Positions 3,412 to 64,000 of a stretch of 64,000 nt of DNA are shown here, piece by piece (position 1 is the first letter of the stretch; the number at the start of each line of letters is the position of its first letter). This DNA comes from Limonium bicolor. Its lineage: Eukaryota > Streptophyta > Magnoliopsida > Caryophyllales > Plumbaginaceae. The notes beneath the pieces were generated by a model. The model was not told the origin of the DNA. It searched no databases and worked only from the letters and a program-made list of their open reading frames with translations. Position numbers and translations under genes: made by a program. The stretch lies in contig CM041776.1 of the NCBI GenBank assembly GCA_023374045.1, forward strand, positions 473,421,375-473,485,374, given 5' to 3'.

Positions 3412-4551
3412 ACTTAGTGTTGCATATCATGTATTCATTTTACACTAATTAAAGAAACATATATAAGTAATTATGTGTAAATTAAAAACTATTGATATAA
3501 ACATTAGTGTGGTTAAGAATGCATCTTCAGTTGTTGATGAACACGTTTATAGACGGTCGTTGATACAATTTTGAATCTTCAACGTAAATATTAATCAACA
3601 ATCATGGATATAATTTAACTTAGTGATTGAAACATTTATCAATTCTAAGGTTAAAATAAGTTCTATTTTATCAGTTGTCCTTACCTTGTGAACTGACACA
3701 ATGACATACATCTATGATTCGTTAAATTGGGCTTTATAAATATATCTTATAAAAAATATAAATGGTTTTAGCAATTTTGGTCTCTGTTTAATTCTTAGAA
3801 GACTTAAGTTTAATATTTTTAAATGAATTATGCGGCACTTTTTTAATTTAGAAAAATACTGCACCTATTTAATTTGTGTTTTTACATTAATTTAAATTTT
3901 TAAACAATATCTACACATTTATATTTGAACTAATATATACTTATTTTTTTGTATGTATGCAAACAATAAATAATACTAGTAAAAGAAAGTATTATTAATA
4001 ATCAAATATATGTGCATTTAATCATACATTTTTTTATATAATTGGAAACTTATTTATAAAAAAAAACAATTATATGTTATTGAGATATTGTAAAAGAAAA
4101 AATTATACACAAACATTATATGATAATACATTTATTTTCTGTTTGTACAAGGAAGATGGAGAGAGCAAAAGAAAGTATAGGTTTATTTTCTATTTACAGT
4201 GTCCGTCGGCGACGGAACATGTCATCCGTGACAGAATCCAAGCTCATAGACATAGGCGGAGACAAGGGGGCGGGTGGGTGTGCGGCCCCTCAACTCTTTC
4301 CGGTATATGTTTATTTTAGTTTCAATTTTGTTGTTATATAGTGTATTTATTTTAATAGATTGTTGTTCGCCCCCTAATATTTTATAAAATATTTTGGTAT
4401 CACATGATAGTATTTATTATTAATTGTTTGCTATTAATATGTAATACTTATTTTAAATTTTTAGTGTATATTTGATAAAAAAAGCTCTTAATAATTTTAT
4501 ATTTTTAGCAATTTAGTAATAAAGCAAAATTAATTATTATATAAGTCTAAG

Positions 4552-30787: not shown

Positions 30788-31309
30788 TTAATGCTTCCGT
30801 ATGACGTCAAACCCTACTGTCCATTTCCTCCTAACCGATAGGTAGTGATTAGAGATGACCCAAGGTCCTTTAGTCAGGACATAGTCCCGGTCCCTTTTCT
30901 CTACGAATTTCACCGTATAATATCCATTGCCTAGAGGAGAAAAGTCAAATTTCTCGAACAGTTTCCACCGCTGTACCAGTCTATCATATAGGATTTGAGC
31001 AAGAAAGGATTTACCTATGAGTTTAACAATCACACGCCTTTCTCCATTCTTTACGAATCTTCCTATCAATCTCATTGGGAAGTATATAATTGTTGGACAT
31101 AACTCGTATTCATTCTCCATAACTTCCTCCTGTACCGAAACTTCATCCTCTGAGATTTTAGTGTCCGAGAACTCTACCCCATCGTGCTTCTTCCAGTCTG
31201 ATACTACATCGCAGAAAGTTCCTTTTGCCCAATCCGTAGCCGGGTTGAAATCTGGGATTAAGTCTTGATTATCAAGAAGTGATCTCTTCTTTTCTTGTAT
31301 GAATGTCAT
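30788..31309 (-). CDS. LINE ORF1 protein, N-terminal DUF4283-like part
   Basis: The open frame starts with ATG at 31309 and runs 173 residues. It has the hallmarks of plant L1 ORF1: a variable acidic start, then RRVIVKLIGKSF, WKLFEKFDFSPLGNGYYTVKF and LTKGPWVISNHYLSVRRW-like sequence, which is the DUF4283 RNA-binding domain. The frame stops at 30788. Further downstream, near 30545, out-of-frame sequence still shows a CRCFGHHFSKC zinc-knuckle-like motif, so the original ORF1 was longer. It would have bound LINE RNA in a ribonucleoprotein with ORF2. Part of a dead element. Confidence 0.8.
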   Translation of the reverse strand: MTFIQEKKRSLLDNQDLIPDFNPATDWAKGTFCDVVSDWKKHDGVEFSDTKISEDEVSVQEEVMENEYELCPTIIYFPMRLIGRFVKNGERRVIVKLIGKSFLAQILYDRLVQRWKLFEKFDFSPLGNGYYTVKFVEKRDRDYVLTKGPWVISNHYLSVRRKWTVGFDVIRKH

Positions 31310-48715: not shown

Positions 48716-49363
48716 CCAATTTCTATTCATATCTGTGTCCACTTGTAGGAAGTTTTGAGAGTCATTCAACCCCGACGTGGTCAGCGTCAGTGTTGAACTA
48801 TCTCTCACCTCAATTTGTGTTCGGTTTCCCTTGATCGGACTAGGATCAAGTTCAACTTCCCACGTCAATTTCAATCAATCAATTGTTTATTCACTTTAAT
48901 CTTGTTTCCTCTTGATATTTGCCACCTTGTGTCCCATAGATACACAAGTCAACTAGTGTAATTAATTTAGTCATTGGCATATAGGATCATGTATCCTAAC
49001 CATGTACCAAGTTCACTCGACTTATAATTATTCATACAATTCCTAGAGGTTTTATCTCCACTAGGTTACACATCAGTCTCATGCCGAGTCACAAATCATA
49101 TAGTATGGAGCTTTCTACTCCTTCTATTTGACATCTCCCACCGAAACTACCAGATAGACCTACTTGAACTCTCAACCGGAGCTAACAAGTTAGGCGTTTA
49201 TGTGTTTAATGTTCGCAACGTTTGCATAAATAATCGGAAATAGAATAAGAACACTCTATCTGTTCTCCCTTTCCTATTCGCCAAAACAATGCGAACTAAA
49301 AAATATATATATTCATACACATAATACATCATAATATTACCTCAAGTAATATAACACAATCAT

Positions 49364-52300
49364 TGTAACACCCATCCAAAGCCAATCGTGGTTATCGCAA
49401 AACTGAACACTTAATCGAATACGTCGCAGCGGAAATAATAAACACCTGGACCTTGCCACGGTCTGATCGTTAGAATATACCGGCCTTAACAATTACAACA
49501 CTTATCCAAAATACATAACCAACCCAACATCACCATCCATAATACCGACAACCAACCGAGTACAAGTAACTAAGTCATAATCACAACCTTACATCAGTTT
49601 AAATATAAACAGACGGGTGCACAGCGCAACCCAACTCAAAATAAAATCCCATCCTAAGTCTAACCGCTCCTACTCTCGTAGTGCGTCCTCATGGGTCTCT
49701 TACCTGCAAGTGTAAAAACAGCCCCCAAAGGGGGTCAGCACGAATGCTGGTACACCCTCTCATGGCCCCCAAGCTAACGGGGCTACGACGACTAATTGTC
49801 GATAGCATGGAAATTGATTACATACACAAGCATGATATGAAGTGCAATAACAATAACCACAGATGAACATATATAGTTCACAAACAATGAACGACTCAAG
49901 CGTTCCCTTATCAAGTGGGTTAGTAACCCCCTCCTTAGTCCTCATTTCCTTAATCTCAGTTCCTTACCTTACCTTAATCTTAATCTCAACTTAGTCTCAG
50001 TATACAAACCGTTCCTGGAAGGGAATGGTTGTAGCTTAATTCGAACCTGGGATTTAGGTGATCCCACCGCACCATCTTAATGCCACCTACTCTGGACGGG
50101 AGTCCAGCGTAGCTGAGCCGGCAACCGGCCCTAGGCTACAAGTCCGAAGACAAGTCCTTAAGCGGAGGGCGGATCTGATTCAGATACCGTCCCCCTTTTT
50201 CCTTAGCATGCATGACCGAGATCGGTCCCGGGTTCCTCACTCAAGTTCCAGTTAGTAGAAATCTTAATCACCATGTGCTAGCTAAGCCTTAACGGGCATT
50301 AACCAACAACCACCAAACTTAACTCTTATTCTTAACTCAGTAAGTACTAAACTTGGTTAGTAACAATCTCAAGTCTCGCGGGTTAGTGTAAAGATAACAC
50401 ATACACAACGAGAACAAATATAACCGGTTGCATGCTTTATCTTGTTTTAGTCATAGCAATTAAACAGATAGCACACAAGCCGAGGGACACCTCGTTACAA
50501 GCAGGTCACAAGAAAGATTGTACCGTTCACCGTCGACGATCGTTTGGTTTATCTCCTTCCAAGTCCCAATTCACCAATCCTAAAACATTGATTCATGTTT
50601 AGGCCATTAGTTATTTGCACCTCACTTAACTCACTTAATCCCTTAAAAATTCCCGATGAATATCCTCTTAAGTCCTTACCACTTAACTTACAAACTTAAC
50701 TTTAGACATTAAGGTTCTTACTTATCTTAACTTGATTCCTTAAGTTCTTAGGGTACTAATCACTACCACCCTACCAAGAGTATACCTTATTACCAATTAC
50801 CATTCTTAGAATTCAAAATTTCTTTTTTTTTAAGTGTTAAGGGTCGTCCGACCCACCCTCTGGGTCGGACCCTTCCAGTAACTTTCGAGTTTGAAAAACT
50901 CTACATGTCCGACCCACGTCCGACCCAACCATCTGGGTCGGACCATTCCAGGAATTTTTCCGTCTTCTAAACCTTCCATGTCCGACCCATGTCCGACCCA
51001 ACCTTTTGGGTCGGACCATTCCAGAAACTTAACCGCCCTTAAAACTCACCCGTCCGACCCATGTCCGACCCAAGTCCTCTGGGTCGGACCATTCCAGAAC
51101 CTTTCCCTGGCGTTAAACAGAGGCCGTCCGACCCAAACTTGGGTCGGACCCCTGGGTCGGACGCCACCAAAACATGCCCAAACTTTGCCAAATCTTCACT
51201 AAACTTTTCCTCAAGCCATCCAATGTGTTCTAACATCATTTAGACCCTTAAACTCATCTTAAACCATCCTCCAAATTCATTCCCAATCCTTTACACAATT
51301 CTTACAACAACTACTAACACTTAACACTTATTCCTCCTACATTTCAACATCCCTTTCACCTAGCACTTCTACCAGCCCAAAGTTCCCTCCTTATGAACTT
51401 GGCCACACCATATACACCACTTTCATCTATCTTACACTTTCCAAGGTTTTCCTTAAATTCTAAACTCTAGTTTCTATCTAAATCATCTCAAGGTTTCACA
51501 CTAATCACATCAAACTTACCAAGGTTTCCTAGCTTCTTCTATCAACATTGGCCTAAGTCCTAAATACCCAAACACACTCTTTTAATTCCTAGATCCTTCA
51601 TAGTGATGCCTAAGTCATTATAACTCATCAAAACACTTTATCTCACCCCTTTTTCATCAGACAACCTCTAAAACTTCCTAGTACTTCCTTAGTCATTAAA
51701 TTCCCTTAGAACATCTTAAACACTTAAGTTCTCCTTTAAATTTTTGCCATGGGTTCTCTAGTATATAGCACATCCTAACACTTGGTTTTTCTCCATCAAC
51801 AACCAATATCTCTCAAATTCTCATCACAACACCTTAACACACAATTTACACACAAAACTACACACACAACATCATATAGTGCACAAACTTAAATGCTTGG
51901 CACTTAGGCCCTTAAATGACAATAATCTTAACCACTGAATTTCCACATATATTTGCCTTTAACCTGCGAATACACACAACAAGGCTCCCATTGAAATAAA
52001 ATGCTTCTTGTAATTCATTTCAACATTGTTTGACTATCTCTTTTCTCATTGGCTCCTTAGTCACAAGTTCTCAAACATAGTCATTGTTTCTCCTAGGTCA
52101 TATATAACCCTTTTCTAATGTAAACTCTACACTAAACTCATCACATATCTAAATCCCATTCCCTTAAACAATAAACACCTTAAGGTAAGTAATTTACCTT
52201 GTTCTTTTACAAGCTTTAAAAACTTTCTTCCTTAGGTTTTTCCTTCTCAATCTCGGTCACCAATATATATCTCCTTGCCAATGTTCTAACCAATATCCAA

Positions 52301-53470
52301 TGACTCCAATGAGTACTAGATAATACATTAACCCTAAGGAACAAACCCTAGGTTAAAAATGTGCTTTAAGGTATTAAGGTGATTGTTTTACCTTGGTTTC
52401 TCAAGACAAGCTTGGATATGAAGCAAGAAGGACCTCCTCAATCCTTTGAAGAGTAGAAACAAGCTAGAACAAGGCATTAAAATGAAGCCTCATGAGCATA
52501 CATTTTCGGTCAAGAAAAAGTGATGGAAACCTAGATTTTCTTACACTTTCTTTACCTTAAGAGAATGGAGAAGCCAATGGAGTCTCCAAACTTGAATTTC
52601 CTCCTCTAATGGTGGTTTGGCTTGGCACCAAATCAAAGCTCTTGAGTTTTGAAAATATAAAGAGAGAGCTTGAGCTAACTAAGAATATGTAATTTGTTTT
52701 GGTTTTGGAGCTAAAATGAGTAAGTTGTGTGCAAGAGAAGGTGGAGCTAGCATGGAGTCTTCACGTTAATGGAGAAGGGAGAGATCTTGAGAAACCGTGG
52801 GCAAGAGAGAATGAAGAGGTGAGGAGAGAGGTGAGTAAAATGAGAATTTATCTTATAAAGTAATAGTACTTTTGCTTTATAACTCTTTATTTGCTTAATG
52901 ACTCATAAAGGTGGTGACTCACCTTATAAAAACCGGCCCCCATTTAATAATAAGGGTACTTAAGTCTTTGTTGACCAAATCTCACTTATATTGACTTATG
53001 TTATAAACTAGCTTAATTAAGTTACTATTCACAAAACAAGGCACATTGTTGTGAAATTTTTGATTTCCCATTGATATAACTTCCAAATGTGATACTATAT
53101 AGTACACATGTTAATTAAAGAGTAATGATGGACATTTAGCCATTCAAAACTCATTTACAAGACAATTTTTCAAAAATGTGCTTTAAGACTCCTTAAGCAC
53201 ATTTTGTGTTTTAACTTGTTTTCAAGCTTGGTTTTCTTTGGTAATTGATTTAAAATGACCATTAGGATATTACTAAGGTCTTAGAACAATATTTGGGTAC
53301 TCTCCCAAGTCTCTCCAAGCTTAGAGCACGTTTTTGCTTAAACTGCTCTTTTGGTGTTTCCTTATATTTTCTTTGATTAGAAATGTTTCTTAATGTTTCT
53401 AAGGCATTATTTAGCCTCCTTATATCTTAGTTTATCATTTAAACACCATATCTAAGTTTGGGGTATTTCA
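49364..53470 (-). repeat. 3' LTR of element C, about 4.1 kb
   Basis: It matches the 5' LTR end to end and is 30 bp shorter because of small deletions, for example lost G or A bases near 49374 and 49620-49645. It has TG...CA ends and abuts the polypurine tract at 53471. Confidence 0.93.
50841..51160. repeat. GTCCGACCCA / TGGGTCGGAC palindrome array in the 3' LTR
   Basis: Roughly 75-80 bp units each hold one or two GTCCGACCCA motifs followed, after 5-7 bases, by the inverse TGGGTCGGAC and then CATTCCAGAA. Each unit can therefore form a hairpin with a 10-bp stem. About five units are present. Similarity between units suggests tandem amplification. Confidence 0.88.
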
Positions 53471-53487
53471 ATCTACCCCCCTTAAAA
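53471..53487 (-). other. Polypurine tract of element C
   Basis: On the minus strand the sequence AAGGGGGGTAGAT precedes the 3' LTR start. A similar tract, CCCCCCTTAAAAAGG on the plus strand, recurs near 53741 closer to the end of pol and could be a second, internal tract. Confidence 0.85.
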
Positions 53488-53782: not shown

Positions 53783-55162
53783 CTAGTCAGTAAACAAAGA
53801 AGGGTACTTCGCCCTCATCTTATCCTCTAATTCCCACGTGGCCTCTTCGACATCCTGGTTAGACCAGAGAACCTTCACCAGTCGCACTGACTTATGGCGA
53901 GTGTCCCTAGTCTTACTGTCCAAGATTCTCTGAGGAGTCTCCACTGATCTCATATTTGGTTCTAAAGTCAACCTCTCAGGTTCTAACACATGGGAGGGGT
54001 GGTGCATGTATTTCTTTAGCTGTGAAACATGAAAAACATTATGCACTTTACCCAGCTCAGCAGGTAAATTCAACCTGTAAGCAACCGGGCCCACCCGCTC
54101 CGTAATCTCATAAGGACCAACAAATTTCGGGCTTAATTTGCCCTTCTGCCCAAACCTGAATACACCCTTCATCGGTGAAACTCGCAGAAATACCTGGTCG
54201 CCCACTGCGAACTCCAGGTCCCGTCGTCGAACATCAGCATACGACTTCTGCCTATCTTGAGCAGCTTCATGTTCTCCCTGATTTGCTGAACTTCAGCCTT
54301 AACTTGCTCTAAGTACTCTGGTCCTATAATGACCGTCTCACTCGACTCATCCCAGCAGAGCGGTGTACGACATGGTCTACCGTACAACGCTTGAAAAGGT
54401 GCCATCTTGATCGAAGCGTGATAGCTGTTGTTGTATGAAAACTCGATCAGATGTAGTCTGTCAATCCAACTGCCCTGGAAGTCTAAGGCACATGCTCTCA
54501 GCATGTCCTCGAGTGTCTGAATAGTACGCTCAGTCTGACCATCTGTCTGAGGATGGAACGCGGTACTCAGCTTGAGTTCTGTACCCAACGCTTCTCTGGT
54601 AGCTCTCCAGTACCTCGAAAGGAATCTGGTATCTCTATCTGACACTATGGTCTTCGGTATCCCGTGATGTCTCATGATTTCTTTCTCAAACAACTCAGCT
54701 AATTTGGTCACCGTCCAAGTATCCTTCATCGGTATGAATCGGGCTACTTTGGTAAGGCGATCCACCACCACCCATATCATGTTGAGACCTCCCCTAGCAG
54801 GTGGAAGCCCAACTACAAGTCCATGGAGATATCATGGAACTTCCACTCCGGAACTGGCATCGACTGTACCATTCCGCCCGGTCGTCGGTGCTCAAATTTC
54901 ACCTTCTGGCATGTGAGACACCTCAAGACGAACTCGGTAACATCTGTCTTCATCCCCGACCACCAGAAGTATCTCTTCATGTCTTTATACATTTTAGAGG
55001 CTCCCGGATGGATGGAAACTGAAGAACAGTGTGATTCTCTAAGTATACGGTCTTTCAGATCCGTGTTGCCCCGTGGTATGCATAACCGGCCCTTAAGTCT
55101 GATCAGATCATCATCATCATGAAGTCTGAAGTCGTATTTCTGACTCTCAAAGGTACCATCTG
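53783..55162 (-). pseudogene. pol: Element C integrase with chromodomain, frameshifted
   Basis: An HHCC zinc-binding region lies near 55010-54900 (ESHCSSVSIHPGASKMYKDM, then CLTCQKVK). The catalytic core at 54780-54169 shows VVVDRLTKVARF, SDRDTRFLSRYW and HPQTDGQTERT, the D, D and E of the family. The C-terminal part at 54205-53783 has FVGPYEITERVGPVAYRL, VFHVSQLKKY and a terminal chromodomain-like VKVLWSNQDVEEATWELED, which places the element among chromoviruses and closest to Tekay/Del. One-base losses near 54790 and 54230 break the frame. The chromodomain would direct insertion into heterochromatin. Confidence 0.92.
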
Positions 55163-56404
55163 TCAGCTTCTGTCTGACCTCTCCATGTACTCATCTGTCC
55201 TCTGAGCCTCTCGCACCTCATCAACCAAGCTGGAGAAAGAAACTAGCGAATGGAGTGAGTGTGCTCGACGGCTCAGGGCGTCTGCTACAACATTGGCCTT
55301 CCCCTCTTTGTATTGGAGGTCAATGTCATAGTCTTTCAGAAACTCTAACCATCTCCTCTGTCGAAGATTCAACTCCTTCTGAGTGAATATGTATCTCAAA
55401 CTCTTGATCGGTGTAGATCGTCACACTAACCCCGTATAAGTAGTGGCGCCATATCTTCAAAGCGAAGACTACAGCTCCCAGCTCCAAATCATGTGTGGGG
55501 TAGTTCTCCTCATGTTTCTTCAACTGGCGTGAGGCATATGCCACCACCTTGCCATGTTGCATGAGCACGCAACCCAGCCCTCTGCCGGATGCATCACAAT
55601 AAACCTCAAAGCCCTCTGTACCGTCTGGAATGGTCAGAACCGGTGCAGTGGTCAGTGAGTCCTTCAAGCTCTGAAATGATCTCTCACAGTCAACCGTCCA
55701 CAAGAACGGTGCATCCTTCTTCATCAGACTGGTCATCGGTTTCGCGACCTTGCTGAAATCCCTAACAAACCTCCTGTAGTAACCTGCCAGACCGAGAAAG
55801 CTCCGGATGTCGGTAACAGTCTTCGGCCTTGGCCAAGTACGTACGGCATCAATCTTCTGGATCCACTGAGATCCCAGCATCTGAGATGACATGACCTAGG
55901 AAAGAGACCTGGTCAAGCCAAAACTCACATTTGGAGAACTTAGCATATAGCTGGTTCTCCCTCAATATTTCCAATACCTCCTCAGATGTTCCTCATGTTC
56001 AACCTTAGATTTCGAGTATATCAAAATGTCATCAATAAACACCACAACCGACTTGTCCAGCTGCTCCCGGAACAAGCGGTTCATCAGATCCATAAACTTC
56101 GCCGGTGCGTTCGACAAACCGAACGGCATCACTGTAAACTCATAGTGGCCGTATCGTGTCCGGAATGCCGTCTTCTCAATGTCTCCCTCCTTAATGGCTA
56201 TCTGATGATACCCCGATCTGAGATCAATCTTGGAGAACACAGATGCTCCCTTCAACTGATCGAACAGATCGTCAATGCGGGGTAGTGGGTACTTATTCTT
56301 CACTGTCACTGCATTCAGCTCTCTGTAGTCGATGCAGAGGCGGAGACTACCATCCTTCTTCTTCACGAAGAGGACTGGCGCTCCCCATGGTGAGACACTT
56401 GGTC
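55163..56404 (-). pseudogene. pol: Element C reverse transcriptase and RNase H, frameshifted
   Basis: Reverse transcriptase is seen at 56366-55962: [46 protein letters not shown] and the catalytic FIDD near 56030. RNase H lies in 55892-55326 and continues to 55163 in another frame, with [31 protein letters not shown] and DALSRRAHS. Shifts of one to two bases near 56395, 55975, 55870, 55410 and 55180 break the frame, while the encoded motifs remain well conserved. They would copy element RNA to DNA in the particle. This copy cannot make a full enzyme. Confidence 0.92.
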
Positions 56405-57111
56405 TTATAAATCCCTTAACAAATCTTTCAATTGTTCCTTTAACTCAGTCATTTCTGCCGGAGCCATACGGTATGGTGCCTTGGCTATCGGTCCGGTACC
56501 AGGTAGCAGCTCGATGGTGAACTCTACCTCCCGAGTGGGTGGCATGCCGGGCAGTTCCCGTGGAAATAAGTCGGGGAACTCCGACACTACCGGTAAGTCG
56601 GGGTCGAACTCAGGGTCTCTCTCTATGTCCTGTACATAGCAGAGGTACACTTCTTCCTTTCTCCTCAATTCCTTATACATTGCCATGGCGGTGATGATCT
56701 TAGTCGAAGGCTCTCTGGGCCTCTGGCGGTATGATATTGTTACCCCAGACGGACTCTTGAGCAGCAATCTATGCTCGGCGCAAAGGATACGTCCCTTGTG
56801 CCGCTCCAACCAGTTCATCCCGAAGATAACATCAAATCCTAACTCACTGAACTCAATGAAACTGACTGGAAAGTCTTCTCCCTTAATTCTGACAGTGGCA
56901 CCTCGGTAGTAACGAGTGCAATGAACCTTCTCCTTAGACGGGAGCGTAACCGTGAAGTCGGGTAGCTCATCAGCGTCTAGCCCCAACCTGCTCGCGAAAG
57001 ATGCCGAGACAAAGGTATGTGAGGCCCCTGAGTCGAAGAGAACTGATGCCTCAATCCCATTAATCGGAAAGGTGCCGGTGAGGATAGTACCGCTGGCGTC
57101 GGCCTGTGCCT
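56405..57111 (-). CDS. pro: Element C protease and start of reverse transcriptase
   Basis: Read from the acceptor at 57111 the frame opens with [15 protein letters not shown] and the retropepsin active site [11 protein letters not shown] near 57025. [18 protein letters not shown], typical of chromovirus proteases, follows. It then runs through [20 protein letters not shown] and [15 protein letters not shown] into the reverse transcriptase. A small deletion near 56395 shifts the frame in the conserved segment before FIRPS. The protease itself is intact. The enzyme would cut the Gag-Pol polyprotein in the particle. Confidence 0.9.
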
Positions 57112-58180
57112 CTGCAAGTATGCTTAGTGCACCTTCCGTACCAAGTCCATAACCTAATTGTGTTCACAAGCTTCATGAGTATTGATGGTATAACAAGAGT
57201 CGTAACAATTTATATGAACAACACTGTTATTTTATTCATGACCATCCCGTTTACAACATGTGCTTTAATCTTACATCTCATTCCTCATCTCATTCTAACG
57301 TTACATGGCTAATATTGTCTAAAGGTTAGGTTTAATCTTCCAGGTCTCATATGCGTCGCATTGATTACTGCTAACGGTGCTGTATTCGACTTGATCCTCT
57401 TAATCCCATGGTATAACATCCTTGATTCTCCTCCCATAATTAATACATCTCCTGATTTAAGTACCAACTTATTCGCACGGTCCGCACGCTTCTGCTCGCC
57501 GTATAAAAACTCTGCATCATCCCCAATGGACCAAGACACTACGGGTATCCCTCTTTCGAGAGACTCCGTTGTCTCGTCCTTATCCTGGTGCAGTCCAAGT
57601 CGCCCATCCTTCTCGTAGAAGTTCACAATGCAAATGTCTGCCCGAATGTCTGGAATCGGTTCAGCTTCCAATTGCTGAGCGATTTCCACGACTTGTGTAA
57701 TAACTGGATGGAACTCTTCGGGTATTCCCGGTGGTGAGACTCCATCTTGCATCCTCGTGGTTTGGTAATTCTTGGCATACGGATTCCAATCCTTGCCCAA
57801 GCTCATCATTTTTAATTTCATCCTTGCTCCCCCTGGGTACTCCGGTGTGTAGAAACCTCCCGGTCCCATTCCTAGTTGATTGCATCTTCTGATGATGGCT
57901 ATTTGTGCTTCGGGTGTCAGGTATCCCCTTAATAAAATCATACCTGGGCGGATAACCTGACATTGTTCGGTTGGAAAGTCTATGGGTTCGATGTCGGTGT
58001 GCTCCGGGTTAGGTGTAGATGGTATTGGATAGCGGATGTTGAAGCTTCCTAAAGTGGTAGTAGGTTATATCTTACTTAAGTTCTAATCTCATCTTATTCT
58101 TACTTAACTCATTTATTCACCAAACATGCATGATAATGCGGTAAGCAGGTAGTTTTATTACTAAATGGTTATAGCAGTAC
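57112..58180 (-). other. Alternative intron 3 containing the AlkB exon (1069 bp)
   Basis: The donor at 58180 (CCAG then GTACTG) can pair with the acceptor ACTTTAG before 58048 (132-bp intron, AlkB included) or with ACTTGCAG before 57111 (1069-bp intron, AlkB skipped). Both acceptors leave two bases that complete the same phase-1 codon, so both products are in frame. CTAAG lies shortly upstream of the distal acceptor. The upstream acceptor has a weak pyrimidine tract, which would favour regulated use. Inferred from sequence only. Confidence 0.7.
57309..58048 (-). CDS. AlkB-type Fe(II)/2-oxoglutarate dioxygenase exon carried by element C
   Basis: The family removes methyl groups from nucleic-acid bases by oxidation. 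This frame is open from the acceptor at 58048 to a TAG at 57311-57309. Numbered from the ATG at 57941 (210 residues), it has the iron ligands H118 and D120 in LGLHQDKDE and H178 in YHGI, and the 2-oxoglutarate-binding arginines R202 and R208 in GRLNLTFRQ. GPGGFY, LKMMSLGK, ADICIVNFY and VSWSIGDDAEFLYG are like plant ALKBH1-type proteins, as is VIRPGMILL just upstream of the domain core. It lies between gag and protease on the same strand. Splicing from 58181 to 58048 adds a Pro-rich linker of about 36 residues and fuses it in frame to Gag, giving about 658 codons. It has no stop or frameshift. The substrate (m6A, m1A, DNA or RNA) is unknown. Confidence 0.93.
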
Positions 58181-58522
58181 CTGGCCTCGATGAGGGTTCA
58201 GGCTCATCGTCCCGGTCCACCATGTGTAGTGTGGGTCCCGTCTTCTGGGTCACCCTTGGGTTCTTGTTCGCCGCCTGTTGCACCTTCCTCTGACCGTCAG
58301 ATCCAGCTCCCTGATCGGTCTTGCCCTTGCCCCTGGTGTCGGGCCTATAGGCTCTGCTAGCAGGATTCCAGTAGCACTCATACGCTCGGTGCCCGTAAAC
58401 TCCACAAAAGTTACACTCCACCTTATTCCCCTTACAATCGAGCCCGGGGTGGTCCTTGTGACACCACCTACAAATGTAGCGTCGCTGGTAGCCACCACCG
58501 GCTCCCTTCTCAGTCTCAGATC
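58181..58522 (-). CDS. gag: Element C gag, exon 3 (two zinc knuckles)
   Basis: It joins exon 2 in frame (phase 1). Two adjacent Cys/His clusters are visible: CRWCHKDHPGLDC and CNFCGVYGHRAYEC, the second a canonical CX2CX4HX4C nucleic-acid-binding knuckle. A charged linker ending DRDDEPEPSSRP follows. It ends in phase 1 at 58181, where donor GTACTG begins. If the donor is not used, the frame reads only five more residues to a stop. Confidence 0.85.
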
Positions 58523-58602
58523 CTGATAATTCATAATATTAGTACTCATTTCTCAAACGGTTACTAAGTTGTTTCTTAACCCAAACAATACCAATCCCTT
58601 AC
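58523..58602 (-). other. Gag intron 2 (80 bp)
   Basis: It runs from GTAAGG (a strong donor) to TTATCAG, with TACTAAT about 20 bases before the acceptor. It is AT-rich and contains stops. Removing it restores an in-frame join in phase 1 between the Lys-rich linker and the zinc-knuckle exon. Confidence 0.78.
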
Positions 58603-58855
58603 CCTTTGGCGCCCTAGAGCGCAGGGGTGTAGCTGCATAAGCATATGTCAACTTCAATGGCTCTTCCGGAGCCTTCTCTTTTTCCTCCTTCCCCTTTGGG
58701 TTCTGACTTTTCTAGGCCTGAGGCTGGTACTTCTGTTTCTTGTACCCACCTTGCCCTTGACTCTCCGAGCTCTTACCAGCATTCTTCCTCTTAGCATTCT
58801 CCTCGTCCCTCAGCTGGACGGTTATTTCAACCTTAGCAGCGGCATGATAGCACTC
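58603..58855 (-). CDS. gag: Element C gag, exon 2
   Basis: It starts after a CAG acceptor with ECYHAAAKVEITVQLRDEENAKR, which continues the capsid frame in phase 0. It is open for 84 codons but for one TAG at 58714-58712 (likely from CAG). The middle is Lys/Gln/Gly-rich, as is usual between capsid and zinc knuckles. It ends in phase 1 before GTAAGG at 58602. Confidence 0.75.
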
Positions 58856-58941: not shown

Positions 58942-59595
58942 CTGCAAGGTAGTGTAACTCGTCAGCCCCATGCCGTAGCGGAGTCGATGGCTAAGCCCGC
59001 CATAGAAGCGGTCCACCAGGATCTGGTCAGAATATCCAAGACCTGGCAGAAGACGGAGCAAGGCGGTGAACTCCGAGTAATACTCGTCCACCGTCATGTT
59101 GTCTGTCTGCTTAGGCGCATCCAACTGCAAGCGCTTCTTCGTCTGGACATGGGCGGGGTAGTACTTTGCTCACAGCAAGGCGGTGTACTGCTCCCAGCCG
59201 AACTCTGGATTGGCCACATGCTCGGCCCTCACTAGCTTCCACCAATCGCCTGCCGCCCCCTTCAGATAAAAGGCAGCCAGACGCACCTTGATCCCAGCAG
59301 GGACGTCAAGGGTCTCGAAGGCGGTCTCCAGCTCGGAGATGTACGCCTCAAGCTTGGCGGGATCGGTCTCCCCCTTAAAGTGTGCGGGTCGAAGATCTGC
59401 AAGACTCTTCACCCAATTCGGTTCCCTGGGTTGTGGCGGTGGAGGTGGTGCACCCACACCAGGCTGATAGCCCATATGCCCTAATGCGGCAGCTACGATC
59501 TCTGCGATCGTCTGCCCTCCCGGTATTCCAGAAGCATCATCACCCTGGCCGCGACCTCGGCTTCCTCTAGGACGTCCTGCCATCTGAACAAGCAT
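58942..59595 (-). CDS. gag: Element C gag, exon 1 (capsid part)
   Basis: The frame begins at 59595 (MLVQ) or more likely at the second ATG, 59583 (MAGRPRGSRGRG). It has the gypsy capsid signature: SLADLRPAHFKGETDPAKLEAYISELE, then AAFYLKGAAGDWWK, MTVDEYYSEFTALLRLLPGL and LVDRFYGGLSHRLRYGM. It is in one frame over 650 bp, except for an in-frame TGA at 59172-59170 where relatives have a sense codon; CGA to TGA is the simplest explanation. The exon ends at TTGCAG with donor GTAATAAG at 58941. Gag forms the virus-like particle and packages element RNA. Confidence 0.85.
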
Positions 59596-59792: not shown

Positions 59793-59804
59793 GCTCTGAT
59801 ACCA
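59793..59804 (-). other. Primer-binding site (initiator tRNA-Met)
   Basis: On the element's strand TGGTATCAGAGC lies five bases inside the 5' LTR. It is complementary to the 3' end of plant initiator tRNA-Met, the usual minus-strand primer of Ty3/gypsy chromoviruses. Confidence 0.95.
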
Positions 59805-59809
59805 CTTTT

Positions 59810-62800
59810 TGTAACACCCGATCCAAAGCCAATCGTGGTTATCGCAAAACTGAACACTTAATCGAATACGTCGCAGCGGAAATAATAAACACCTGGACCT
59901 TGCCACGGTCTGATCATTAGAATATACCGGCCTTAACAATTACAACACTTATCCAAAATACATAACCAACCCAAAACATCACCATCCATAATACCGACAA
60001 CCAACCGAGTACAAGTAACTAAGTCATAATCACAACCTTACATCAGTTTAAATATAAACAGACGGGTGCACAGGCGCAACCCGAACTCAAAAATAAACAT
60101 CCCATCCTAAGTCTAACCGCTCCTACTCTCGTAGTGCGTCCTCATGGGTCTCTTACCTGTAAGTGTAAAAACAGCCCCCAAAGGGGGTCAACACGAATGC
60201 TGGTACACCCTCTCATGGCCCCCAAGCTAACGGGACTACGACGACTAATTGTCGATAGCATGGAAATTGATTACATACACAAGCATGATATGAAGTGCAA
60301 TAACAATAACCACAGATGAACATATATAGTTCACAAACAATGAACGACTCAAGCGTTCCCTTATCAAGTGGGTTAGTAACCCCCTCCTTAGTCCTCATTT
60401 CCTTAATCTCAGTTCCTTACCTTACCTTAATCTTAATCTCAACTTAGTCTCAGTATACAAACCGTTCCTGGAAGGGAATGGTTGTAGCTTAATTCGAACC
60501 TGGGATTTAGGTGATCCCACCGCACCATATTAATGCCACCTACTCTGGACGGGAGTCTAGCGTAGCTGAGCCGGCAACCGGCCCTAGGCTACAAGTCCGA
60601 AGACAAGTCCTTAAGCGGAGGGCGGATCTGATTCAGATACCGTCCCCCTTTTTCCTTAGCATGCATGACCGGAGATCGGTCCCGGGTTTCCTCACTCAAG
60701 TTCCAGTTAGTAGAAATCTTAATCACCATGTGCTAGCTAAGCCTTAACGGGCATTAACCAACAACCACCAAACTTAACTCTTATTCTTAACTCAGTAAGT
60801 ACTAAACTTGGTTAGTAACAATCTCAAGTCTTGCGGGTTAGTGTAAAGATAACACATACACAACGAGAACAAATATAACCGGTTGCATGCTTTATCTTGT
60901 TTTAGTCATAGCAATTAAACAGATAGCACACAAGCCGAGGGACACCTCGTTAGCAAGCAGGTCACAAGAAAGATTGTACCGTTCACCGTCGACGATCGTT
61001 TGGTTTATCTCCTTCCAAGTCCCAATTCACCAATCCTAAAACATTGGTTCATGTTTAGGCCATTAGTTATTTGCACCTTACTTAACTCACTTAATCCCTT
61101 AAAAATTCCCGATGAATATCCTCTTAAGTCCTTACCACTTAACTTACAAACTTAACTTTAGACATTAAGGTTCTTACTTATCTTAACTTGATTCCTTAAG
61201 TTCTTAGGGTACTAATCACTACCACCCTACCAAGAGTATACCTTATTACCAATTACCGTTCTTAGAATTCAATTTTTTTTTAAGTGTTAAGGGTCGTCCG
61301 ACCCACCGTCCGACCCACCCTCTGGGTCGGACCCTTCCAGTAACTTTCGAGTTTGAAAAACTCTACATGTCCGACCCACGTCCGACCCAACCATCTGGGT
61401 CGGACCATTCCAGAAATTTTTTCCATCTTCTAAACCTTCCATGTCCGACCCATGTCCGACCCAACCTTTTGGGTCAGACCATTCCAGAAACTTAACCGCC
61501 CTTTCAAACTCACCCGTCCGACCCATGTCCGACCCAAGTCCTCTGGGTCGGACCATTCCAGAACCTTTCCCTGGCGTTAAACAGAGGCCGTCCGACCCAA
61601 ACTTGGGTCGGACCCCTGGGTCGGACGCCACCAAAACATGCCCAAACTTTGCCAAATCTTCACTAAACTTTTCCTCAAGCCATCCAGTGTGTTCTAACAT
61701 CATTTAGACCCTTAAACTAATCTTAAACCATCCTCCAAATTCATTCCCAATCCTTTACACAATTCTTACAACAACTACTAACACTTAACACTTATTCCTC
61801 TCCTACATTTCAACATCCCTTTCACCTAGCACTTCTACCAGCCCAAAGTTCCTTCCTTATGAACTTGGCCACACCATATACACCACTTTCATCTATCTTA
61901 CACTTTCCAAGGTTTTCCTTAAATTCTAAACTCTAGTTTCTATCTAAATCATCTCAAGGTTTCACACTAACTCACATCAAACTTACCAAGGTTTCCTAGC
62001 TTCTTCTATCAACATTGGCCTAAGTCCTAAATACCCAAACACACTCTTTTTAATTCCTAGATCCTTCATAGTGATGCCTAAGTCATTATAACTCATCAAA
62101 ACACTTTATCTCACCCCTTTTTCATCGCGACAACCTCTAAAACTTCCTAGTACTTCCTTAGTCATTAAATTCCCTTAGAACATCTTAAACACTTAAGTTC
62201 TCCTTTAGATTTTTGCCATGGGTTCTCTAGTATATAGCACATCCTAACACTTGGTTTTTCTCCATCAACCAACCAATATCTCTCAAATTCTCATCACAAC
62301 ACCTTAACACACAATTTACACCAAAACTACACCGCAACATCATATAGTGCACAAACTTAAATGCTTGGCACTTAGGCCCTTAAATGACAATAATCTTAAC
62401 CACTGAATTTCCACATATATTTGCCTTTAACCTGCGAATACACACAACAAGGCTCCCATTGAAATAAAATGCTTCTTGTAATTCATTTCAACATTGTTTG
62501 ACTATCTCTTTTCTCATTGGCTCCTTAGTCCCAAGTTCTCAAACATAGTCATTGTTTCTCCTAGGTATATATAACCCTTTTCTAATGTAAACTCTACACT
62601 AAACTCATCACATATCTAAATCCCATTCCCTTAAACCACCTTAAGGTAAGTAATTTACCTTGTTCTTTTACAAGCTTTAAAAACTTTCTTCCTTAGGTTT
62701 TTCCTTCCTCAATCTCGGTCACCAATATATATCTCCTTGCCAATGTTCTAACCAATATCCAATGACTCCAATGAGTACTAGATAATACATTAACCCTAAG

Positions 62801-63946
62801 GAACAAACCCTAGGTTAAAAATGTGCTTTAAGGTATTAAGGTGATTGTTTTACCTTGGTTTCTCAAGACAAGCTTGGATATGAAGCAAGAAGGACCTCCT
62901 CAATCCTTTGAAGAGTAGAGAAAAGCTAGAATAAGGCATTAAAATGAAGCCTCATGAGCATACATTTTCGGTCAAGAAGAAAAGTGATGGAAACCTAGAT
63001 TTTCTTACACTTTCTTTACCTTAAGAGAATGGAGAAGCCAATGGAGTCTCCAAACTTGAATTTCCTCCTCTAATGGTGGTTTGGCTTGGCACCAAATCAA
63101 AGCTCTTGAAGTTTTGAAAAGATAGAAAGAGAGAGCTTGAGCTAACTAAGAGAAATATGTAATTTGTTTTGGTTTTGGAGCTAAAATGAGTAAGTTGTGT
63201 GCAAGAGAAGGTGGAGCTAGCATGGAGTTGCTCTTCACGTTAATGGAGAAGGGAGAGAGCTTGAGAAAACCGTGGGACAAGAGAGAATGAAGATGTGAGG
63301 AGAGAGGTGAGTAAAATGAGATATTTATCTTATAAAGTAAATAGTACTTTGCTTTATAACTCTTTATTTGCTTAATGACTCATAAAGGTGGTGACTCACC
63401 TTATAAAAAACCGGCCCCCATTTAATAATAAGGGTACTTAAGTCTTTGTTGACCAAATCTCTCACTTATATTGACTTATGTTATAAACTAGCTTAATTAA
63501 GTTACTAACAAAACAAGGCACATTGTTGTGAAATTTTGATTTCCCATTGATATAAACTTCCAAATGTGATACTATAGTACACATGTTAATTAAAGAGTAA
63601 TGATGGACATTTAGCCATTCAAAACTCATTTACAAGACAATTTTTCAAAAATGTGCTTTAAGACTCCTTAAGGCACATTTTGTGTTTTAACTTGTTTTCA
63701 AGCTTGGTTTTCTTTGGTAATTTATTTAAAATGACCATTAGGATATTACTAAGGTCTTAGAACAATATTTGGGTACTCTCCCAAGTCTCTCCAAGCTTAG
63801 AGCACGTTTTTTCTTAAACTGCTCTTTTGGTGTTTCCTTATATTTTCTTTGATTAGAAATGTTTCTTAATGTTTCTAAGGCATTATTTAGCCTCCTTATA
63901 TCTTAGTTTATCATTTAAACACCATATCTAAGTTTGGGGTATTTCA
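59810..63946 (-). repeat. 5' LTR of element C, about 4.1 kb
   Basis: It is colinear with 49364-53470 and nearly identical. Visible differences are mainly transitions and one- to few-base indels. It carries the promoter of the element by definition, but no TATA box could be assigned with confidence. It includes the GTCCGACCCA palindrome array at 61291-61627. The short frames it contains, including one of 138 codons, are products of this array. Confidence 0.93.
61291..61627. repeat. GTCCGACCCA / TGGGTCGGAC palindrome array in the 5' LTR
   Basis: The same array as in the other LTR, with one extra CGTCCGACCCAC motif in the first unit. Its presence in both LTRs shows it was in the element before insertion. 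Confidence 0.88.
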
Positions 63947-64000
63947 GTCATAATACTTGTACTCTATGTACAATAATAGTTTGCAGCATGTGTACCATGC
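63947..64000 (-). other. Element B, resumed to the right of element C
   Basis: It begins with GTCAT, the duplicated target of the element C insertion, and continues out of the window. It should be the continuation of the internal region that ends at 49363. Confidence 0.6.

What the first reader, a model, noticed from the sequence alone, without database searches (positions are those of the whole stretch)
57309..58048. A retrotransposon that carries an AlkB-type demethylase
A full AlkB-type dioxygenase domain with HxD, distal His and RxNLTFR motifs sits between the gag zinc knuckles and the protease of a Tekay/Del chromovirus, on the same strand. AlkB domains are established in some plant RNA viruses (the flexivirus group), and I recall a report that host ALKBH9B promotes movement of the Arabidopsis element Onsen, so an element carrying its own demethylase makes sense as a counter to RNA methylation. 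I know of no established LTR-element family with this architecture. The sequence resembles plant ALKBH1-type proteins, which points to capture of a host transcript.
Basis: partly seen in the sequence, partly recalled or inferred. Interest (0 to 1): 0.96.

Follow-up and report, generated by a model that had tools for sequence, protein, structure and literature searches.

The report
Jumping gene with spliced-in AlkB demethylase
A family of thousands of retrotransposon copies in this 2.9-billion-base, probably plant, genome carries a conserved AlkB-type enzyme gene between gag and pol, and rare copies in which gag is joined exactly to AlkB or exactly to pol suggest that RNA splicing chooses between the two, giving a Gag-AlkB protein that would likely strip methyl marks from the element's own RNA or DNA.

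Summary
In detail: an intact ALKBH1-type dioxygenase ORF lies between gag and protease of a young Ty3/gypsy element, on its strand. It is no chance insert: 12 of 12 copies that I chose by their RT carry AlkB at the same site, and at least two further AlkB-bearing families occur in the genome. AlkB is under purifying selection (dN/dS 0.19 in those 12).

New here: the apparently broken gag is split by GT-AG stretches, likely introns, and AlkB looks like an exon. One donor behind the zinc knuckle is joined exactly to AlkB at 11 genomic sites and exactly to pol at 14, against 4,146 unjoined sites; a decoy junction gives 0. The joins recur on several branches of the copy tree, as expected of reverse-transcribed spliced RNA. 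Likely outputs: Gag, Gag-AlkB, Gag-Pol.

AlkB in plant Gypsy elements is not new: Phalaenopsis Ogre/Tat elements carry an ALKBH5-type m6A demethylase (PMC9289625). Element lineage, AlkB subfamily, place and expression differ here. No RNA was examined; splicing in vivo, substrate, packaging and benefit are inferred. Host donor gene, species and Tekay placement stayed open.

The parts
59810..63946 (-). 5' LTR (about 4.14 kb)
   Evidence: self-comparison and LTR alignment, 43 substitutions in 4,090 aligned sites
49364..53470 (-). 3' LTR (about 4.11 kb)
49359..49363 (.). target-site duplication, ATCAT (other side GTCAT at 63947-63951; 4 of 5 alike)
59793..59804 (-). primer binding site TGGTATCAGAGC (complement of initiator tRNA-Met 3' end, recalled)
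53471..53483 (-). purine-rich tract directly before the 3' LTR
   Evidence: sequence shown
58942..59595 (-). gag exon 1 (capsid); one stop in this copy; donor CAG|GTAATAAG
   Evidence: open in L052, L056 and L069
58856..58941 (-). predicted intron 1 (86 nt)
   Evidence: GT in 26/26 and AG in 27/27 copies whose alignment reached the site; exact join at 475 genomic sites, unjoined at 4,110
58603..58855 (-). gag exon 2; one stop in this copy; donor AAAGG|GTAAGG
58523..58602 (-). predicted intron 2 (80 nt)
   Evidence: GT 27/28, AG 27/29 copies; absent in 21 of the 67 copies of the tree
58181..58522 (-). gag exon 3 with CCHC knuckle; open in this copy; ends at the shared donor GGCCAG|GTACTG
58049..58180 (-). 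predicted intron 3 (shared donor to AlkB acceptor, 132 nt); reading on into it meets a stop after a few codons, which would end Gag
   Evidence: exact join at 11 sites
57309..58048 (-). AlkB exon: 246 codons with stop, holding the 210-aa ALKBH1-type domain (ATG at 57941) and an N-terminal FNIR stretch where other copies and plant ALKBH1 have FNIC/FDIC
57154..57308 (-). spacer between AlkB stop and pol acceptor; 57154-58180 is the predicted intron of the Gag-Pol splice
   Evidence: exact join at 14 sites; AG in 30 of 30 copies
56405..57153 (-). pol start and protease (RVP_2); acceptor AATTAG|GTTATGGA
55962..56366 (-). reverse transcriptase part (its frame is shifted against the protease frame in this copy)
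55326..55892 (-). RT/RNase H
54169..54780 (-). integrase core
   Evidence: E=0.00047, below Pfam cut-off
53783..54205 (-). integrase C-terminal SH3-like part and chromodomain
   Evidence: chromodomain 25.0 bits, cut-off 25.1

Best explanation
This is a Ty3/gypsy retrotransposon, likely a chromovirus, whose gag is split by GT-AG stretches that are likely introns and which carries an ALKBH1-type AlkB as an exon that splicing likely includes or skips, so that one donor behind the Gag zinc knuckle would feed either AlkB (Gag-AlkB) or pol (Gag-Pol). Shown by sequence: the order of parts; conserved GT and AG ends; both joins present as exact junctions in genomic copies, recurring on separate branches; AlkB under purifying selection; its metal and 2-oxoglutarate residues and an ALKBH1-like predicted fold. 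Inferred: the junction copies are reverse-transcribed spliced RNAs; retention of intron 3 gives Gag alone; the Gag part carries AlkB into the virus-like particle next to the packaged RNA and new cDNA; there it removes methyl groups from adenines (N6-methyladenine first, in RNA or in single-stranded DNA) that host control or damage has placed, and so helps the element multiply. AlkB likely came from a plant-type ALKBH1, long enough ago that at least three element families in this genome, and likely one other organism, carry it.
For: Splicing: GT/AG at D1 26/26, A1 27/27, D2 27/28, A2 27/29, D3 26/27, A3 30/30, A4 30/30 among 30 copies; denominators are copies whose alignment reached the site. 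Exact gag|AlkB join 11 sites, reversed-pattern control 0; exact gag|pol join 14 sites, control 0; int1 join 475, control 0; unjoined D3 4,146, unjoined D1 4,110, all at up to 3 mismatches; decoy from the same donor to an in-phase AG 42 nt behind the pol acceptor: 0. Mapping puts the joins at the predicted bases. Recurrence: on a 67-copy gag-exon tree the fewest changes are 12 (int1), 14 (int2), 5 (int3), 9 (AlkB cassette). Frames: native joined copies hold one ORF across gag and AlkB (449 aa, L058) or across gag, protease and part of RT (812 aa, L071); the ORF over the join is at least 200 aa in 5 of 11 gag|AlkB and 7 of 14 gag|pol loci. Selection: dN/dS of AlkB 0.19 and of gag exon 3 0.105 in 12 RT-chosen copies; AlkB L089-L090 0.124 at dS 0.71. 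Family: AlkB in 12 of 12 RT-chosen copies, full 210-aa frame in 6 of 12; 4,712 sites of a second AlkB type, of which 8 loci were read and 7 lie before protease/RT. Enzyme: best solved fold OsALKBH1, TM 0.91-0.93, model pLDDT 93. Other organism: an AlkB 76% alike (P0001) and the only gag exon-1 relative found (P0121, 70%) both sit on a contig of 26,621 bases.
Against: No RNA was seen; splicing is read from genomic junctions. The 30 copies were picked by AlkB score, so their intact AlkB (26 of 30 open and in frame; 138 of 150 matches without stops) is biased; in those copies gag exon 1 was open in 5 of 18, exon 2 in 17 of 26, exon 3 in 18 of 27. In the RT-chosen copies AlkB is broken in 6 of 12. 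Some joined loci are near-identical pairs (such as L051/L052, L058/L059, L060/L061, L066/L067, L073/L074), so 11 and 14 overstate events. In 6 of 11 and 7 of 14 joined loci the frame over the join is under 200 aa. Template switching could spread one spliced segment to several branches, so the change counts overstate independent events. Protein activity, packaging and benefit are untested. No host donor gene was found.
Confidence: 0.72

Rival explanations
1. AlkB works, but on DNA rather than RNA: like rice ALKBH1 it removes N6-methyladenine (or alkylation damage) from single-stranded cDNA, RNA-DNA hybrids or R-loops, or acts on chromatin of new insertions.
For: Closest sequence and fold is plant ALKBH1; no ALKBH5 chain among the 21 solved sequences matched at E<=0.001. 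ALKBH1 is reported to act on 6mA in single-stranded or unpaired DNA, in rice in R-loops (PMC10469495 abstract and passages). Reverse transcription makes just such substrates (inference).
Against: [quoted passage not shown] the ONSEN and orchid precedents concern RNA m6A (PMC12786077 passages; PMC9289625).
Confidence: 0.35
2. AlkB is made as a free 210-aa protein from its own ATG (internal or reinitiated translation on unspliced RNA); the introns matter only for gag and pol.
For: M1 is nearly invariant, though it is so in host ALKBH1 too, where it lies inside longer proteins; most copies keep intron 3 (4,146 sites against 11).
Against: Exact gag|AlkB joins at 11 sites, with ORFs of up to 449 aa across the join; the codons between acceptor and ATG keep an ALKBH1-type FDIC/FNIC motif across families (FNIR in the window copy).
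Confidence: 0.12
3. Intron-less and AlkB-less copies are the older state; AlkB and introns were later insertions, and no splicing occurs.
For: Two divergent AlkB-less loci (L073, L074) exist; tree changes have no direction.
Against: Joined copies sit on several branches amid copies that keep the introns, e.g. L041/L042 at 99% identity to L021 and L069 inside the window copy's own group (98/82); boundaries are GT-AG; decoy junction 0.
Confidence: 0.06
4. AlkB is a passenger without use to the element.
For: 6 of 12 RT-chosen copies have a broken AlkB, as many copies have broken gag.
Against: dN/dS 0.19 within the family and 0.124 between L089 and L090; H118, D120 and H178 invariant in nine element-type AlkBs, the other eight at 60-76% identity to the window's.
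Confidence: 0.05
5. Chance secondary insertion or misassembly.
For: None found.
Against: 12 of 12 RT-chosen copies, on six of the eight large contigs, have the same arrangement; 4,146 donor sites.
Confidence: 0.01

Closest known systems
Phalaenopsis AlkB-bearing Gypsy elements (Gypsy_Pa_2799, PMC9289625)
   Same: Plant Ty3/gypsy LTR element with a full AlkB-type dioxygenase; many copies; catalytic residues kept; there m6A RNA demethylation was shown in vitro.
   Different: Those are 25.5-kb elements sister to Ogre (Tat) with 6.4-kb LTRs, tRNA-Arg PBS, gag-pol in one ORF and a separate 565-aa ORF2 whose AlkB is ALKBH5/9B-like. Here: about 14.6 kb, initiator-Met PBS, borderline chromodomain, ALKBH1-type AlkB as an exon between gag and pol.
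Ogre retrotransposons with an intron between gag and pol (named in PMC9289625, PMC12786077 and PMC3735527; the splicing paper of 2008 is not held)
   Same: Spliceosomal intron kept in genomic copies; splicing links ORFs.
   Different: No AlkB exon and no choice between two exons behind one donor in the passages I read.
BARE1 and EVADE short-Gag splicing in Ty1/Copia (passages of PMC3735527 and PMC12786077)
   Same: Splicing sets the ratio of Gag to Gag-Pol.
   Different: Copia superfamily; the splice makes a stop and brings no new domain; [quoted passage not shown]
Plant ALKBH1 (OsALKBH1, PDB 5xeg/5xoi; PMC10469495)
   Same: 51% identity, TM 0.91-0.93 to the model, same metal and 2OG residues.
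   Different: A host gene; the element versions form a clade of their own and are joined to Gag.
AlkB domains of plant flexiviruses and closteroviruses (named in the PMC9289625 Discussion; place inside the replicase recalled)
   Same: Mobile replicator that acquired AlkB.
   Different: RNA viruses; no common origin was tested.

Membership tests
Ty3/gypsy chromovirus LTR retrotransposon | two LTRs, PBS and target-site duplication | tested here: met
   LTRs 43 substitutions in 4,090 sites; PBS; TSD 4 of 5
Ty3/gypsy chromovirus LTR retrotransposon | gag - PR - RT - RNase H - INT order | tested here: met
   Pfam hits in that order on the minus strand; capsid, knuckle and integrase core are below Pfam's own cut-offs
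Ty3/gypsy chromovirus LTR retrotransposon | chromodomain behind integrase | tested here: inconclusive
   PF00385 E=1.8e-5, 25.0 bits against cut-off 25.1
Tekay/Del lineage | RT placement among Tekay references | not testable with these tools
   no reference RT set at hand; initiator-Met PBS and long LTRs fit but do not decide (recalled)
AlkB / plant ALKBH1 family | PF13532 domain with HxD...H and RxNLTFR | tested here: met
AlkB / plant ALKBH1 family | ALKBH1-type fold, nearest OsALKBH1 | tested here: met
   predicted model against PDB
AlkB / plant ALKBH1 family | demethylase activity | not testable with these tools
   needs protein
AlkB / plant ALKBH1 family | nested inside host ALKBH1 of this lineage | tested here: inconclusive
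   own clade 99/99 on a long branch, deep forks unresolved; host gene not found
Phalaenopsis AlkB Gypsy elements | ALKBH5/9B-type AlkB | tested here: not met
   21 solved sequences at E<=0.001 are OsALKBH1, E. coli AlkB and animal ALKBH1, none ALKBH5; a tree with ALKBH5/9B was not made
Phalaenopsis AlkB Gypsy elements | gag-pol single ORF plus separate ORF2; tRNA-Arg PBS | tested here: not met
   AlkB lies between gag and pol; PBS matches initiator-Met (recalled)
Splice-regulated LTR elements (Ogre/BARE/EVADE type) | intron with conserved GT-AG ends between coding parts | tested here: met
Splice-regulated LTR elements (Ogre/BARE/EVADE type) | spliced RNA seen | not testable with these tools
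   no RNA data; only genomic junction copies

The most novel reading that the evidence does not exclude
An old lineage of retrotransposons, spread over at least three families in this genome and present in a second organism, uses a captured plant ALKBH1 as an alternative exon: one splice donor behind gag switches between Gag, Gag-AlkB and Gag-Pol, and Gag carries the demethylase into the particle, where it cleans methylated adenines from the element's RNA or cDNA. It would be the first particle-borne nucleic-acid demethylase of a retroelement that I know of.
Probability: 0.5. Interest if true: 0.9.

Novelty: new variant of a known kind. Interest (0 to 1): 0.82.

Why it matters
It is a second, apparently separate case of a plant LTR element with an AlkB enzyme, from another AlkB subfamily and another element lineage, which makes adenine methylation more credible as a real pressure on retroelements. 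The Gag-AlkB join names a testable delivery route. The genome holds thousands of copies with intron 1 and hundreds without, so splicing of an LTR element, and reverse transcription of its spliced RNA, can be studied by counting copies.

Tried and rejected
Rejected: chance insertion and misassembly (12 of 12 RT-chosen copies). Rejected: pol acceptor at reference position 2331, my first guess; its probe gives 0 sites, and L035 showed the acceptor at 2289. Rejected: an intron inside AlkB of L092/L093; it looks like an inverted-repeat, MITE-like insert between two AATATTTA copies. Failed: finding the host's own ALKBH1; a degenerate host-type probe hit 1,082 sites, of which the listed ones are, all but one, variants of one unrelated repeat; the unlisted ones were not seen, so the gene may be among them. 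Failed: naming donor or species; in the profile search the named entries among the 120 listed (of 3,033; 7,996 candidates scored) are angiosperms. Not reached: an int2-join count. Scans of the window for tRNAs and Rfam families found nothing. Papers: the listings of searches showed no paper on AlkB in a chromovirus; the one AlkB LTR-element study found is PMC9289625, with a review that cites it (PMC12786077). PMC11939994, listed for 2OG-Fe and Tekay together, was not opened.

Full report
OBSERVATION. The window (C1:473421375-473485374 of an unnamed 2.92-Gb assembly) holds a minus-strand LTR element of about 14.6 kb. LTRs lie at 49364-53470 and 59810-63946, with 43 substitutions in 4,090 aligned sites (K 0.0106; about 0.4-0.8 million years at recalled rates), flanks ATCAT/GTCAT, and a PBS matching initiator tRNA-Met (recalled) at 59804-59793. 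Pfam finds capsid, CCHC knuckle, protease, RT, RNase H, integrase and chromodomain in order; capsid, knuckle and integrase core are below Pfam's cut-offs and the chromodomain sits at it. Between knuckle and protease lies a 210-aa ORF with PF13532 at E=1.7e-46. H118, D120, H178, R202 and R208 are present. The AlphaFold2 model (pLDDT 93.4) is closest to OsALKBH1 (5xeg/5xoi, TM 0.91-0.93, 51% identity).

IT IS A FAMILY. In the same genome 150 of 150 scored AlkB matches are 95-100% identical to the window's, 138 of 150 without stops; these are the best of 50,428 first-look candidates, so the set is biased. For a sample not chosen by AlkB I picked 12 places by hand at steps down the 150 scored RT matches (of 72,239 candidates; I had first asked for 40). 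AlkB is at the same place in 12 of 12, its full frame open in 6 of 12. 4,146 sites match the gag donor region at up to 3 mismatches.

GAG IS SPLIT AND AlkB LOOKS LIKE AN EXON. In most of 30 copies the gag frame breaks at the same places. The breaks begin with GT and end with AG: D1 26/26, A1 27/27, D2 27/28, A2 27/29, D3 26/27, A3 30/30, A4 30/30. Skipping them keeps the frame, as read in L021 and as it stands in native joined copies such as L071. In the window the exons are 59595-58942, 58855-58603, 58522-58181, then AlkB 58048-57309 or pol from 57153. The window copy has one stop in gag exon 1, one in exon 2, and a frame shift in RT; its knuckle and AlkB exons are open. If D3 is not used, the frame meets a stop a few codons later in many copies, which would end Gag. 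Gag is often broken in the AlkB-picked copies: exon 1 open in 5 of 18, exon 2 in 17 of 26, exon 3 in 18 of 27, AlkB in 26 of 30.

GENOMIC COPIES OF SPLICED RNA. Probes for exact exon joins (up to 3 mismatches) gave: exon1|exon2 475 sites, gag|AlkB 11, gag|pol 14, each with 0 for the reversed pattern. Unjoined counts are 4,110 for D1 and 4,146 for D3. A decoy from the same donor to an in-phase AG 42 nt behind the pol acceptor gave 0. Mapping shows the stretches missing at the predicted bases and in different combinations: int1 only, int1+int2, int3 only, int2+int3, AlkB cassette with or without int1/int2. Some joined loci are near-identical pairs. On a tree of gag exons (67 of 87 loci; 20 dropped for missing exons; L035 and L063 are one place) the fewest changes are 12, 14, 5 and 9 for int1, int2, int3 and the cassette (an earlier 58-row tree gave 9, 10 and 6 for the introns). 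Joined copies stand among intron-bearing close relatives. Native joined copies hold open frames across the join: 449 aa gag exons 2-3 plus AlkB (L058), 812 aa gag to RT (L071); at least 200 aa in 5 of 11 gag|AlkB and 7 of 14 gag|pol loci, shorter in the rest. The plain reading is that spliced RNA is now and then reverse transcribed. Template switching could make the change counts too high.

SELECTION. In the 12 RT-chosen copies dN/dS is 0.19 for AlkB and 0.105 for gag exon 3; for AlkB of the second type 0.124 (L089-L090, dS 0.71) and 0.187 (L088-L089; L088 is frame-shifted near its end); between distant families synonymous sites are saturated or nearly so. A pooled pN/pS of 0.17 over the AlkB-picked copies agrees but is biased.

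AN OLDER, WIDER LINEAGE. A degenerate probe for a second AlkB type (FSIGDxAEFL, which the window's WSIGD type misses) hit 4,712 sites at up to 1 mismatch, control 0. The first 8 listed loci, all on C1, were read: 7 have protease/RT behind AlkB and five of these clear gag parts before it; L091 shows only an AlkB fragment. By eye, AG acceptors before FDIC and before pol recur in L088, L089, L090, L094 and L095. In the AlkB tree the element types and five unnamed proteins (P0001-P0004, P0085) form one clade (99/99), with P0002 sister to L094 (97/91) and P0001+P0003 next to the window family (89/83); how the clade attaches to angiosperm ALKBH1 is unresolved (first tree). So the window's type, the L088-L090 type and the L094 type make at least three families; L095 is probably a fourth but was not in the tree. 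A search with gag exon 1 found one relative among 625 candidates, P0121 (70%), on a contig of 26,621 bases; P0001 (AlkB, 76%) lies on a contig of the same length. That these are one contig is inferred from the length. P0121 also ends three codons after TTLQ, the place of intron 1.

MECHANISM. Shown by sequence: order of parts, joins, selection, residues; the fold is predicted. Inferred: splicing in vivo; Gag, Gag-AlkB and Gag-Pol as products; packaging of AlkB through Gag; demethylation of adenines in packaged RNA or new cDNA as the benefit. For RNA speak the orchid precedent and the ONSEN-ALKBH9B work (PMC9289625 parts 1-4 of 7 and Discussion; PMC12786077 passages). For DNA speaks the ALKBH1 subfamily, reported to act on 6mA in single-stranded DNA and R-loops, while the same paper says ALKBH1 can act on DNA and RNA (PMC10469495 abstract and passages). 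I put RNA slightly ahead because the packaged genome is RNA, with low certainty.

COMPARISON AND NOVELTY. AlkB in a plant Gypsy element is known from two Phalaenopsis species (Ogre/Tat, ALKBH5-like, separate ORF2); that screen of 121 plant genomes reported the domain in no other genome. The present element differs in lineage, AlkB subfamily, place and expression. Splicing in LTR elements is known (Ogre, BARE1, EVADE); a choice between an accessory enzyme exon and pol behind one donor I did not find in the listings of searches. Hence a new variant of a known kind.

LIMITS. No RNA, no protein data, no species name, no host ALKBH1, no RT placement.

Noticed in passing
L076-L087, reference 1261-1393 and 2134-2288: Intron 3 and the post-AlkB spacer differ less between copies (0.037, 0.028) than synonymous sites of the neighbouring exons (0.11-0.23); perhaps decay of methylated CpG in GC-rich exons.
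   Followed up: partly
L094, L095 (protease region, GNVITG|GTAAGGCT): These loci show a further intron-like break in the protease part that L088-L090 lack, so introns may come and go in this lineage.
   Followed up: no
L092 and L093 around 700-1110: A MITE-like inverted-repeat insert with a repeated AATATTTA sits inside the AlkB exon (sequence of L092 shown).
   Followed up: partly
L073, L074: Divergent AlkB-less relatives (81% gag exon 1, 85% pol) with an exact gag|pol join: old spliced copies or the state before AlkB came.
   Followed up: partly
window 50823-51135 and 61285-61600: The LTRs hold a 73-bp tandem repeat.
   Followed up: no
window 30788-31309 (-): DUF4283 ORF, perhaps of a LINE.
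   Followed up: no
P0084 (Paspalum notatum), with P0068, P0062 and unnamed P0011: ALKBH1-like proteins, 205 aa in three of the four; the P0084 cluster has 42 member sequences; possibly another multiplied AlkB, context unknown.
   Followed up: no
P0122 (Artemisia annua): One protein with two AlkB stretches.
   Followed up: no
own genome, GAATTCTTCTATGATGATATTAGTGAT: Unrelated repeat that makes up nearly all listed hits of the 1,082-site host-type probe.
   Followed up: no
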